A program made the position numbers and the translations under genes. This document shows positions 58,327-61,273 of a stretch of DNA of 64,000 nucleotides, piece after piece. Numbering within the stretch: position 1 is the stretch's first letter; the number at the start of each line of letters is the position of its first letter. Location of the stretch: assembly GCF_004216555.1 (NCBI RefSeq), contig NZ_SGWQ01000005.1:372001-436000 (forward strand), written 5' to 3'. The stretch comes from Herbihabitans rhizosphaerae. GTDB lineage: Bacteria > Actinomycetota > Actinomycetes > Mycobacteriales > Pseudonocardiaceae. The notes under the pieces are model-generated. The model was not told the DNA's origin and did no database searches. It worked only from the letters and a program-made list of their open reading frames with translations.

Positions 58327-59169
58327 TCACATAAATTCGTTGGCAACCGAATCGAGAAGAATTTTCGCACGCTCGCCGGAAACGGCACGGTCGCGAAAGT
58401 ATTCGAACAAGTTGAGGTGGTATTCGACGTCCTGCGGGTCGCGCAGGGCGACTTCCCCGGAGAACAGTTCGACTATCACGAGGCGATCGTCGTAGACCAC
58501 GAACACGTTCAGCGGTGCGGCACTGACCATGACGCCATTCGGGATGATCGCAAGATCCAGGTTCGGCTGGTCTACGAGCGCGGACATATGTCGGAGTTGG
58601 CTCACTATGACGGCCGACTCGGCGCGCTGCCACCGAACCGCTTGTTCGGTGAGAAGAAAGTGGAATCGGCGAGACTCGTCCGTGAGGACTTCTTGACTGT
58701 CCAGGCGAGCCCTGACGGCCTTCTCCACGTCCCGGTCAGGGTTGCCCTTCACGGTCGGAGTGAGGACCGCGCGAGCGTACTCGGGAGCTTGGATCAGTCC
58801 AGAGGGGATAGCCGGTAGGAACTGCCGGACCGCGGACGATGATTCCGCGAGCGCTTTCAGCTCAGCTTGCTTTCGCCAGAGGCCGACTCGGGCATACGAG
58901 CGCCACGACGCATAGTCGACGTTGGCCGCACGGGCTAGCGAGAGCAGTTCGTGAGCCACCTCTGCGGGCACGTCGAGCGCCTTCACGATGCGCTCGACGT
59001 CTACGACGGTGGGCAAGACCTTGCCGGATTCGATCCGGCTCACCTTGGACTGAGACATGGCTGCGCGAACGGCCAGCCTGTCGCCGGACAGGCCAGCCGC
59101 TTTGCGTAGGTCCCTCAGCGCCTCTGCCAGATGCTTGCGACCTTGTTCCCGATTGTCAGGTTCGAGCAT
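58327..59169 (-). CDS. XRE-family regulator with DUF5753 domain
   Basis: A 280-residue protein: helix-turn-helix 'ALRDLRKAAGLSGDRLAVRAAMSQSKVSRIESGKVLPTVVDVERIVKAL' and a DUF5753 C-terminal domain ('LPAIPSGLIQAPEYARAVL', 'RQEVLTD'-like, 'FHFLLTEQAVRWQ', 'LAIIPNGVMVSAAPLNVFVVYDDRLVIVELFSGEVALRDPQDVEYHLNLFEYFRDRAVSG'). WhiJ/AbaA-like regulators of this sort control secondary metabolism in Streptomyces. Its start overlaps the DUF6879 gene end by 14 bp. Confidence 0.9.
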   Translation of the reverse strand: MLEPDNREQGRKHLAEALRDLRKAAGLSGDRLAVRAAMSQSKVSRIESGKVLPTVVDVERIVKALDVPAEVAHELLSLARAANVDYASWRSYARVGLWRKQAELKALAESSSAVRQFLPAIPSGLIQAPEYARAVLTPTVKGNPDRDVEKAVRARLDSQEVLTDESRRFHFLLTEQAVRWQRAESAVIVSQLRHMSALVDQPNLDLAIIPNGVMVSAAPLNVFVVYDDRLVIVELFSGEVALRDPQDVEYHLNLFEYFRDRAVSGERAKILLDSVANEFM

Positions 59170-59671
59170 TCCATTCACTGAAGCGTTGAGCGTGGGCCAA
59201 TGCCGTGTCACGCCAATTGAGGTACTTGTCCAAGTCCGGGTGTTCGATCTTGTCCACGTTGATCAGGGTTCCGTCGGAGCGGAAGTTCAGATCGACCACC
59301 GTGGACTCATCAAAGAGCCAAAAGTCTTGCGAAGGCAGCTCGAGGTCAAGCTCGGTGAGGTCAAGGATACGAATGTCCTCACCGGCCACAATATTTCCCG
59401 GAACCGCCCAATCAAGCTGGAACCTCTGGTACTCGGTGAGCGGCTGCCGGACAGTGCGGACGCGACCGATGGTCTTACCGGCTGCCACCAGAGACCGGAC
59501 CGTCTCGTGCCACGCCGAGTTGTGCTCCTCGGGCTTGGGTTCCCCGGTGCGCCACCGGCGCAGATTCTCCTGCTCGTTCGGCATGGTGTAGGTCGGCTGA
59601 GTCTCGAATCTCCACGCCGATTGTTCGTAGCCGGTGAGGTACCGGCCGAACTGTTCCCCGTCTAGGAGCAC
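59156..59671 (-). CDS. DUF6879-like protein, 171 aa
   Basis: 'LDGEQFGRYLTGYEQSAWRFETQPTYTMPNEQENLRRWRTGEP', 'VRTVRQPLTEYQRFQLDWAVPGNIVAGEDIRILDLTELDLELPSQDFWLFDESTVVDLNFR': the conserved text of DUF6879 proteins, which usually sit next to XRE/DUF5753 regulators. Starts at GTG 59671, overlapping the next upstream gene by 10 bp. Function unknown; probable partner of the regulator. Confidence 0.85.
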   Translation of the reverse strand: MLLDGEQFGRYLTGYEQSAWRFETQPTYTMPNEQENLRRWRTGEPKPEEHNSAWHETVRSLVAAGKTIGRVRTVRQPLTEYQRFQLDWAVPGNIVAGEDIRILDLTELDLELPSQDFWLFDESTVVDLNFRSDGTLINVDKIEHPDLDKYLNWRDTALAHAQRFSEWNART

Positions 59672-59904
59672 TGCAGAGCCTCCGTGAGCCGTTGTACCGT
59701 CTCCGCGCTGCCCGACCGGGCCAGTGCGGTCACCGCCGCCAGCACCACGTCGGGCGGCAACTCGACGGCCGATTCGCCGTCTCCCAGCTCCAATCCCTCA
59801 GCGGTGGTCACGAGATCGCCTTGCACCACGGCTGTTCCCCGGTCCGAGACATAGACGGCCGGGCACGTGCCGTTCTCACAACCGGACACCTTACGTAGCT
59901 TCAT
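59662..59904 (-). CDS. Small Cys-containing protein, 80 aa
   Basis: MKLRKVSGCENGTCPAVYVS, then 'DRGTAVVQGDLVTTAEGLEL' and a helical tail ending 'QRLTEALQCS'. The 'CxxGxCPxVYxxDRG' motif recurs in small proteins beside DUF6879/XRE genes. Occupies the place taken by DUF397 proteins in whiJ-type clusters. Overlaps the DUF6879 gene. Diverges from the peptide gene at 60047, so the 142-bp gap holds both promoters. Confidence 0.75.
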   Translation of the reverse strand: MKLRKVSGCENGTCPAVYVSDRGTAVVQGDLVTTAEGLELGDGESAVELPPDVVLAAVTALARSGSAETVQRLTEALQCS

Positions 59905-60046
59905 GCTTACAGCCTCCGCTACAGGGTCTGGCCCGGGCAAACGCCAGTCACGATCTCGCATAACTTGGCTGGGCTTCACCCGTTCCCGGCACTGTCGTGC
60001 TCCGGCAACCTGGAAGGGCGATCTTCCTGAGACAGGAGGTAGACGG

Positions 60047-60157
60047 GTGGGCAAGCGTGACGCGGACCGGGACGGTCAGGGCGACTCTCAGCCGGACAAG
60101 TGGGAGAACTGGGGTAGCAAGGACGATGGCAACAAGCACGAAGGCGACGACAAGTAG
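60047..60157 (+). CDS. Putative imiditide-like RiPP precursor peptide, 36 aa
   Basis: AGGAGGT (60034-60040), the best Shine-Dalgarno in the window, stands 6 nt before GTG 60047. The product is extremely charged and hydrophilic: 9 Asp, 2 Glu, 5 Lys and 2 Arg of 36, with no hydrophobic stretch. Asp-Gly pairs occur at residues 9-10 ('RDGQGDS') and 27-28 ('DDGNKH'), separated by 'KWENWGS'. Asp-Gly is the most favourable site for methylation-driven aspartimide formation. A PIMT-like gene starts 15 bp later on the same strand. Known imiditides have just such a pair. Modification and the residue used are inference. Confidence 0.65.
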   Translation: MGKRDADRDGQGDSQPDKWENWGSKDDGNKHEGDDK

Positions 60158-60172
60158 AGGCGAAACGACACT

Positions 60173-61273
60173 GTGACCGACTGGCGCGAACGACTCTCCG
60201 TACCGCGCGACCAGTTCGTCCCGTCCGTGGTGTGGGTGGCCGCCCCCGCCACGGACGGGTTCGTCTCGGTGTCGCGGGAGGAGGACGAATCCCGGTGGCG
60301 TGCGCTGATCGACGCCGACGAACCGATCGTCACCCAGGTTGACGACGGCGAGACCCCGCCCGGCGGACTCGGGTTGCAGCCGTCCAGCTCGTGCAGTCAG
60401 CCGTCGCTGGTGGCCACCATGCTTGACGCGCTGGAGGTGCACGAGGGACACCGCGTGCTGGAGATCGGCACCGGCACCGGCTGGAACGCCGCTCTCCTGT
60501 CTGAGCGGGCCGGAGAGGCCGGGCATGTCGTGTCGATCGAGGTGGACCCCGACGTCGCTGACAACGCCCGGGATGCGTTGGTCCGTGTCGGACACGCCCC
60601 ACTGGTCGTGACGGCGGACGGCACCGGGGGCCACCCGCGCGACGCCCCATACGACCGCGTGATCTGTACCGCATCGGTCCGGCGGATTCCCCGACCGTGG
60701 ATCGACCAGACCCGGCCCGGCGGCCTGATCGTGACCCCGTGGGGCACCGACTACGGATACGACGCACTGCTGCGCCTCGATGTGCACGAGGACGGCTCGG
60801 CGTCCGGCAGGTGCGGAATGAGTCTGGCGTTCATGCGGGTGCGGCACCAGCGCCGACAATTCCTCGACCCGACCGCCGAAGAACAGGCCGAGGCGGACGC
60901 GACCACGACGGCCCGCAGCGGCCAGGAGTTCTTCGAGATCACGGCCTTCCCCCGAGCGGCTTTCACGATCGGGCTCCGCGTGCCGTACTGCTACGTCACC
61001 GTCGAGGACCTCGATGTCGATCACCGAAGGATCGAGTTTCACGACGCGCGCACGGCTTCGTGGGCGCGAGTCGCGATGGTCCGGGGTGCCGACTCGTTCG
61101 AGGTTCGCCAGCTCGGCCCCCGCCGACTCTGGGATGAGGTGGACGACGCCTACGCCTGGTGGCGCGACCACGGCAAGCCCACGCCGGACCGGTACGGGCT
61201 GACCGTCCACCCGGACGGCGAACACACCGTGTGGATCGACACGTCAGCCGGCGAACACCGCTGGTCTCTGTGA
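60173..61273 (+). CDS. PIMT-like O-methyltransferase (RiPP aspartyl methyltransferase)
   Basis: A 366-residue protein. Residues ~70-215 are a protein-L-isoaspartate O-methyltransferase domain: 'CSQPSLVATMLDALEVHEGHRVLEIGTGTGWNAALLSERAG' (SAM motif I), 'VVSIEVDPDVADNARDAL', 'DAPYDRVICTASVRRIPRPWIDQTRPGGLIVTPWG'. The N-terminal 'RDQFVPSVVW...DEPIVTQVDDGE' and a ~150-residue C-terminal extension distinguish it from housekeeping PIMT (~210 residues) and are typical of PIMT homologues in RiPP clusters (graspetide, lanthipeptide, lasso and imiditide systems). Follows the charged peptide gene after 15 bp. No ATP-grasp, LanB/C/M or lasso enzyme nearby. Confidence 0.85.
   Translation: MTDWRERLSVPRDQFVPSVVWVAAPATDGFVSVSREEDESRWRALIDADEPIVTQVDDGETPPGGLGLQPSSSCSQPSLVATMLDALEVHEGHRVLEIGTGTGWNAALLSERAGEAGHVVSIEVDPDVADNARDALVRVGHAPLVVTADGTGGHPRDAPYDRVICTASVRRIPRPWIDQTRPGGLIVTPWGTDYGYDALLRLDVHEDGSASGRCGMSLAFMRVRHQRRQFLDPTAEEQAEADATTTARSGQEFFEITAFPRAAFTIGLRVPYCYVTVEDLDVDHRRIEFHDARTASWARVAMVRGADSFEVRQLGPRRLWDEVDDAYAWWRDHGKPTPDRYGLTVHPDGEHTVWIDTSAGEHRWSL

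What the first reader, a model, noticed from the sequence alone, without database searches (positions are those of the whole stretch)
60047..61273. Minimal aspartimide-forming RiPP locus: charged 36-aa peptide plus PIMT-like methyltransferase
Seen: a 36-codon gene with a perfect AGGAGGT site, encoding an extremely charged peptide (18 of 36 residues Asp/Glu/Lys/Arg) with two Asp-Gly pairs, followed after 15 bp by an isoaspartate-methyltransferase homologue with a ~150-residue C-terminal extension. No ATP-grasp, lanthipeptide or lasso enzyme is near. Known: PIMT homologues in RiPP clusters methylate Asp, which then cyclises to aspartimide; the imiditide class consists of just a charged precursor and such an enzyme. 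Inference: this pair makes an imiditide-like product with modification at Asp9 or Asp27. The peptide does not belong to any family I can name, so it may be a new member or subclass.
Basis: partly seen in the sequence, partly recalled or inferred. Interest (0 to 1): 0.88.

Follow-up and report, generated by a model that had tools for sequence, protein, structure and literature searches.

The report
Two-gene aspartimide peptide cassette, Pseudonocardiaceae
A tiny gene for a very charged 36-residue peptide sits next to a gene for an aspartate-methylating enzyme, and the pair is conserved in related bacteria, so it most likely makes a member of a recently described class of modified peptides (imiditides, also called type I pamtides).

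Summary
The 36-codon gene (60047-60157) and the 366-aa PIMT-like methyltransferase (60173-61273) are as described. The peptide is no chance frame: of the 30 best methyltransferase places in 390 family genomes, 28 have an intact related peptide upstream, and pN<pS in 190 of 190 pairs. The enzyme has the C-terminal domain and WXXXGXP motif of RiPP-associated PIMTs. No ATP-grasp or lanthipeptide enzyme was found among 15 proteins scanned around it. This fits an imiditide (type I pamtide) cassette: the enzyme methylates one Asp, which closes to an aspartimide and can open to isoAsp. The chemistry is inferred, not shown.

Asp9 (Asp9-Gly10) is the likeliest site. Asp5, Asp9 and Asp27 are conserved in close relatives, but the Gly after Asp27 is not. 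The precursors form a family (WENW/WETW core, net acidic, Pro-poor), seen here only in Pseudonocardiaceae; the peptide profile itself was searched only there. They differ from precursors read in three other actinobacterial families. In the methyltransferase tree, precursor type follows enzyme clade with few exceptions. I rate it a new member of a known kind, possibly a distinct subclass.

The parts
60034..60040 (+). AGGAGGT ribosome-binding site of the peptide gene
   Evidence: read directly; an SD-like motif precedes 29 of 32 listed peptide genes (the 32 include duplicates and the two broken ones)
60047..60157 (+). 36-aa precursor peptide gene (GTG start, TAG stop)
   Evidence: conserved family, pN<pS in 190 of 190 pairs of 20 sequences
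60071..60076 (+). Asp9-Gly10, the favoured modification site
   Evidence: D9 invariant in 24 of 24 rows of alignment A1, G10 in at least 90%; function is inference
60125..60127 (+). Asp27, second candidate site
   Evidence: D in 20 of 20 close relatives, but the following residue varies
60173..61273 (+). PIMT-like methyltransferase (PAMT), 366 aa, GTG start
   Evidence: Pfam PCMT 1e-32; TIGR04188 319.6 bits, below its cut-off of 380
60386..60406 (+). SSCSQPS (residues 72-78) in the PCMT domain; five of the seven positions invariant across 29 relatives
60455..60481 (+). VLEIGTGTG (residues 95-103), SAM-binding motif
   Evidence: the motif name is recalled
60842..61270 (+). C-terminal extra domain (residues 224-366)
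   Evidence: beyond the Pfam PCMT match; the model aligns to T. maritima PIMT 1DL5 over residues 41-399 of the 408-residue fusion model, Z 25.2
61160..61180 (+). WRDHGKP (residues 330-336), the WXXXGXP motif of RiPP-associated PIMTs
   Evidence: present in 25 of 29 aligned relatives, lacking in L013, L016, L033, L040; motif as given in PMC13001092

Best explanation
The locus is a minimal imiditide (type I pamtide) cassette. The methyltransferase binds the unfolded, highly charged peptide, probably through its extra C-terminal domain. It transfers a methyl group from SAM to the side chain of one Asp, most likely Asp9. The neighbouring backbone nitrogen (Gly10) then displaces methanol without further catalysis, giving an aspartimide, which can hydrolyse to isoAsp or Asp. 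Shown here: both genes, the peptide's conservation as a protein, its pairing with the enzyme, the enzyme's domain make-up, and the match of precursor type and enzyme clade. Inferred from the literature on characterised relatives: the chemistry, the site, and recognition through charged termini. The product's biological role is unknown.
For: Pairing: 28 of the 30 best methyltransferase places have an intact related peptide upstream; the other two (L033, L038) carry a frame-shifted or degenerate one. A profile of 24 peptides run on 390 family genomes gave 30 hits at E<=1e-10 in 29 genomes, all directly upstream of this methyltransferase; since most of these loci supplied the profile's rows, the informative part is that no further strong hit lies away from the enzyme. 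A 31st hit (E 6.8e-6) is a decayed peptide beside a frame-broken enzyme copy. Selection on protein: mean pS 0.598, pN 0.148, pN<pS in 190 of 190 pairs. Enzyme: PCMT domain, C-terminal domain, WXXXGXP; top structural match TmPIMT 1DL5, Z 25.2, rmsd 6.4 over 271 residues, the structure that Lee et al. place in the PAMT clade. Tree: seven label groups need 6 changes, the least possible; shuffled mean 52.7 (several labels were set by hand and that of L120 was wrong). Site: D9 invariant in 24 of 24 rows, D9-G10 in 20 of 20 close relatives; Asp-Gly is also the modified pair of the PAMT substrate SsfA.
Against: No chemistry was tested. The AlphaFold2 model of a read-through fusion left the peptide at pLDDT under 50, so it gives no support for Asp9 in the active site. 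Peptide and enzyme are both net acidic (K+R-D-E of -4 and -22), so the opposite-charge recognition described for NmaA/NmaM does not carry over at the level of net charge. In an NmaA-like locus (L188) the likely site is Asp-His in mid-peptide, and no early Asp-Gly exists. Asp5 and Asp27 are as conserved as Asp9 in the 20 closest relatives. Four of 29 relatives lack the exact WXXXGXP motif.
Confidence: 0.8

Rival explanations
1. Same enzyme-substrate reading, but the modified residue is Asp27 (or Asp5), with the N-terminal DRDG stretch serving recognition. The odds given are for the site alone and overlap with the best explanation.
For: Asp5, Asp9 and Asp27 are all invariant in 20 close relatives. 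In NmaA the first 20 residues can be removed and modification is still seen, at lower levels (PMC13001092 passages).
Against: The residue after Asp27 is G, Q, P, E or A, and Asp27 is missing in the divergent L037. Asp5 is followed by varied residues and is replaced in several sister precursors, whereas an early DG pair recurs in most precursor groups (with the limits given in the report).
Confidence: 0.3
2. The peptide is not a substrate but a translational or regulatory partner of the methyltransferase, for example an upstream frame that couples translation, or a small binding protein.
For: Short gap or overlap with the enzyme gene; no export or protease gene recurs nearby in six or more of 29 loci.
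Against: A frame kept only for coupling would not need its amino-acid sequence; pN is far below pS, and precursor type tracks enzyme clade. Homologous two-gene loci act as substrate and enzyme (NmaA/NmaM, SpaA/SpaM).
Confidence: 0.1
3. The methyltransferase is an ordinary isoaspartate repair enzyme and the peptide an unrelated neighbour.
For: Pfam PCMT match; fold match to repair PIMTs.
Against: C-terminal domain and WXXXGXP motif; four NCBIfam repair-PIMT models score far below their cut-offs (115.5 of 282, 107.4 of 188, 94.9 of 159, 93.2 of 359); constant peptide partner.
Confidence: 0.03
4. The pair is a detached part of a graspetide pathway whose ATP-grasp enzyme lies elsewhere in the genome.
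For: Best NCBIfam match is the ATP-grasp-associated methyltransferase (TIGR04188, 319.6 bits, cut-off 380); the genome has two over-cut-off ATP-grasp genes of that system and weaker matches on another contig. Around one of 28 relatives (L050) a 110-aa frame just downstream, on the other strand, matches the ATP-grasp protein at only 19 bits: chance or a remnant, not settled.
Against: Both over-cut-off ATP-grasp genes sit beside their own methyltransferase paralogues (L002, L003), which lie outside the clade of this enzyme. No other ORF around the 28 relatives or the window matched those ATP-grasp proteins at E<=1e-3.
Confidence: 0.02

Closest known systems
Imiditide NmaA/NmaM (Nonomuraea maritima), Cao et al. 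2023; paper not held, known through passages of the review PMC13001092
   Same: Two-gene cassette; RiPP-type PIMT with C-terminal domain and WXXXGXP; short charged linear precursor
   Different: The review speaks of strong positive charges in imiditides; this peptide is net acidic (-4; all 30 peptides counted are negative). NmaA's modified Asp is followed by His; here the candidate is Asp-Gly near the N-terminus. An NmaA-like locus (L188; whether it is NmaA was not tested) has 38% enzyme identity
Type I pamtide SpaA/SpaM (Streptomyces sparsogenes), Lee et al. 2023, PMC10787088 (parts 1 and 2 of the text and sections 2.3 and 2.5 read)
   Same: Two-gene cluster, conserved Asp near Gly/Pro, charged termini, PAMT as the only modifying enzyme
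   Different: Type I precursors average 16.8% Pro and 17.3% Gly; the WENW set has 5% Pro, 14% Gly, 21% Asp. SpaA's sequence was not seen
Graspetide methyltransferases (TIGR04188; L002 and L003 in the same genome)
   Same: Homologous enzyme, 38% and 36% identity over nearly full length
   Different: They sit beside an ATP-grasp gene; this one does not
Thermotoga maritima PIMT (PDB 1DL5)
   Same: Aligns over both domains, Z 25.2
   Different: Not known to act on a dedicated peptide partner (recalled)

Membership tests
Imiditide / type I pamtide | Two-gene cluster of precursor and PAMT, no other class-defining RiPP enzyme nearby | tested here: met
   Pfam on 15 proteins; ATP-grasp and LANC matches only elsewhere in the genome; around 28 relatives and the window the only neighbour recurring in six or more loci is a DUF5753-type regulator group, in 14 of 29
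Imiditide / type I pamtide | PIMT homologue with C-terminal extension over 100 aa and WXXXGXP motif | tested here: met
   PCMT match ends at residue 223 of 366; WRDHGKP at 330-336; 25 of 29 aligned relatives have the motif
[quoted passage not shown]
   D5 and D9 invariant, G10 and P16 at 90% or more in 24 rows
Imiditide / type I pamtide | Gly/Pro/Asp-rich composition | tested here: inconclusive
   Asp and Gly rich, Pro poor; the published figures are averages over several conservation patterns
Imiditide / type I pamtide | Enzyme methylates one Asp of the linear precursor, giving aspartimide or isoAsp | not testable with these tools
   needs expression and mass spectrometry
Type II pamtide / cysimiditide | Two CxxCxGxG zinc-binding motifs in the precursor | tested here: not met
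   no Cys in the peptide
Graspetide (graspimiditide) | ATP-grasp macrocyclase beside the methyltransferase; TIGR04188 at or over cut-off | tested here: not met
   319.6 of 380 bits; over-cut-off TIGR04187 matches only at the two paralogous loci
Lanthipeptide with FxLD methyltransferase | TIGR04364 at or over cut-off and lanthipeptide cyclase nearby | tested here: not met
   125.7 of 320 bits; LANC matches on other contigs
Repair PIMT (pcm) | Equivalog-level match to repair-PIMT models | tested here: not met
   four models below their cut-offs

The most novel reading that the evidence does not exclude
The WENW precursors of Pseudonocardiaceae are a distinct imiditide subclass: anionic instead of cationic, with the aspartimide placed at an N-terminal Asp-Gly and recognition from a C-terminal follower (NKHE plus acidic tail). 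Where the sister YDH/YDP precursors mostly have a second Asp, these have a nearly invariant Gln (Q15). If so, this enzyme family can move its target Asp along a precursor during evolution, and the product is unlikely to act on membranes as suggested for cationic imiditides.
Probability: 0.3. Interest if true: 0.6.

Novelty: new member of a known kind. Interest (0 to 1): 0.42.

Why it matters
The imiditide class was named in 2023, and the 2026 review (passages read) says the role of the aspartimide in these peptides remains unclear. A precursor family found in 12 of 46 genera sampled in Pseudonocardiaceae (strong hits), with conserved Asp residues and tight pairing to its enzyme, offers a compact two-gene system in which the target Asp, the recognition element and the role of net charge can be tested by single substitutions. 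That precursor type follows enzyme clade would help genome mining to predict substrates.

Tried and rejected
AlphaFold2 on an in-frame read-through fusion (TAG read as Gly, 408 residues, 29 rows, of which 13 held the peptide) was meant to show which Asp reaches the active site; the peptide stayed below pLDDT 50, so it decided nothing. The second prediction job was not used.

A conserved export, protease or maturation gene was sought among ORFs of 70 aa or more within about 9 kb around 28 relatives and in the window's last 14 kb. Groups present in six or more loci were the methyltransferase, frames overlapping it, and DUF5753-type regulators (14 of 29 loci). With the window's own regulator as query 13 loci, the window included, matched at E<=1e-5, some several kb away; DUF6879 matched in 5 loci, the window included. 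Regulators of this kind are common in actinobacteria (recalled), so I draw no link.

Anchoring the window peptide to NmaA by distance from the C-terminus was tried and dropped: the residue at a similar distance (Asp17) is Glu in 7 of 20 relatives.

The imiditide paper itself (Cao et al. 2023) is not held, so whether this precursor family is among the 1414 type I pamtides counted by Lee et al. could not be checked. Searches for 'imiditide', 'aspartimide + methyltransferase + RiPP', 'pamtide' and 'aspartimide + Pseudonocardiaceae' listed no title or abstract start that names it; supplements could not be searched.

Limits of the counts. The 20 sequences leave out duplicates and the most divergent members of the 32 listed. 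Beyond the 30 best places, upstream frames were read for L070-L101 (32 loci), where the frame printed is sometimes doubtful (L075, L083, L084, L085, L094) and L099 has none. For one search I chose one peptide per locus by eye, set the first residue to Met, trimmed some long N-termini, left some loci out, and picked the DG pattern after looking. One YDH hit (L071) is a DG outside the homologous place, which is Asn-Gly there. The shuffles reached the observed number for PGQPW, 'other' and KHGGGG. Four rows (L080, L085, L094, L098) were left out of the tree. The three weakest profile hits (E 0.005-0.009) were not examined.

Full report
What is there. The enzyme matches Pfam PCMT over residues 71-223 and has 143 further residues. 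Its best NCBIfam model is the ATP-grasp-associated methyltransferase TIGR04188, at 319.6 bits against a cut-off of 380; four repair-PIMT models score far below theirs. The neighbours scanned are ordinary: abhydrolase, FAD oxidase, VTT protein, amidohydrolase, sigma factor, short-chain dehydrogenase, one protein without a match, TauE exporter, aldo/keto reductase, class II aldolase, and a divergent DUF5753 regulator with a DUF6879 protein.

The peptide is a real gene. The genome's family is Pseudonocardiaceae: Thermocrispum agreste falls in it (locus L009 is identical to that of G380). Of 390 genomes of this family, 50 carry the methyltransferase at E<=1e-70. Of the 30 best places, 28 have an intact related peptide upstream; L033 has a frameshift in its second half and L038 a degenerate first half. 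Over 20 aligned relatives pN is below pS in all 190 pairs (means 0.148 and 0.598), and third codon positions vary most. A profile of 24 peptides found 30 hits at E<=1e-10 in 29 of 390 genomes, each directly upstream of the methyltransferase. Most of these loci supplied the profile's rows, so the informative part is that no other strong hit turned up away from the enzyme. One more hit (E 6.8e-6) is a decayed peptide beside a frame-broken enzyme copy; three weak hits (E 0.005-0.009) were not examined. The profile was not run outside the family.

Which Asp. In the 24-row alignment D5, D9 and G12 are invariant, and G2, R8, G10, Q15, P16, K18, D27, K30 and H31 reach 90%. In 20 close relatives D5, D9 and D27 are invariant; the residue after D9 is always Gly, after D27 it is G, Q, P, E or A. 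A DG pair in the first 55% of the precursor recurs in other groups: 26 of 27 WENW (shuffled mean 7.9, maximum 17), 10 of 10 YDH (3.2, maximum 9; one of the ten, L071, is not at the homologous place), 10 of 16 from families f90/f91 (3.0, maximum 8), 8 of 10 PGQPW (1.8, maximum 8), 7 of 14 'other' (3.3, maximum 7), 6 of 11 KHGGGG (3.0, maximum 8) (pattern chosen after looking). Asp-Gly is the modified pair in SsfA, and TxDGC is the lanthipeptide core motif (PMC10787088). So Asp9 is favoured, but not proven; the structure model could not place the peptide.

Family context. More distant enzymes in the same family carry other precursors, for example GKH...DGQG-TYDPxKTK...GGGKHDKDD. In another family of the same class (f5; unnamed, Streptomycetaceae is my guess) 66 of 150 genomes have a match at E<=1e-60, with DGLPGQPWTPP... 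or QQDDSNSGNKHGGGG... peptides among 30 loci read (none found for L120). In a phylum-wide sample only 2 of 396 genomes, the own one included, matched at E<=1e-65. In a class-wide sample 25 of 325 genomes, the own one included, matched a YDH-type enzyme at E<=1e-55, and the f90/f91 peptides read there are different again. In a tree of 92 enzymes the YDH, PGQPW and KHGGGG groups are each one side of a branch; WENW needs two changes, because L066 joins the YDH side and L068 lies at the base (label of L120 corrected). By my own manual alignment, L066 (GYQPDKT) bridges the WENW type (SQPDKW) and the YDH type (TYDPDKT), which sets Gln15 of the WENW type where most YDH peptides have an Asp (L072 has Glu and L078 Thr there).

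Comparison with known systems. Imiditides and type I pamtides are two-gene loci of this build; 1414 type I pamtides are reported (PMC13001092, passages). Features tested and met: two-gene build, extra domain, WXXXGXP motif (25 of 29 relatives), conserved Asp near Gly/Pro. Differences: low Pro and net negative charge. A locus in family f90 (L188) has a DEDGD stretch in its enzyme, as reported for NmaM, and a peptide with an Asp-His pair, as reported for NmaA; I take it as NmaA-like, not as NmaA. It has no early DG.

Verdict. The cassette is a member of the imiditide/type I pamtide kind (0.8), with a precursor family seen here only in one bacterial family. Asp9 is the likeliest site (about 0.6). 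The chemistry and the role remain to be tested.

Noticed in passing
window 58327-59904, minus strand: Divergent regulator (HTH with DUF5753), DUF6879 protein and an 80-aa small frame next to the cassette. DUF6879 recurs in four relatives (L043, L046, L057, L058); in L058 a second regulator-DUF6879 set stands by a second peptide and enzyme copy.
   Followed up: partly
L161 (G002:C1:3849000-3854500): A second, decayed copy of the peptide-enzyme pair with frame breaks in both genes.
   Followed up: yes
32 listed peptide genes: Stop codon TAG in 25 of 32 peptide genes, TGA in 5 and TAA in 2. In 15 of 32, the window included, peptide and enzyme are in one frame with a single stop (TAG) between them. 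That TAG is usually not the commonest stop in actinobacteria is recalled.
   Followed up: no
L166, L185, L189: Upstream frames with CxxCxG-type motifs, i.e. type II pamtide-like; the one in L166 begins with the GKH seen in many type I precursors.
   Followed up: no
L002, L003 (same genome): Two graspetide-type loci with ATP-grasp and methyltransferase genes in the same genome; one lies on the window's contig at 355.6-357.7 kb, before the window's start at 372 kb.
   Followed up: partly
L080, L058, L047: Further copies or breaks of the enzyme near the cassette: frame-split in L080, a shorter second copy in L058, a partial second copy in L047.
   Followed up: no
L050, just downstream of the methyltransferase: A 110-aa frame on the other strand with a 19-bit match to the graspetide ATP-grasp protein; chance or a remnant.
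   Followed up: partly
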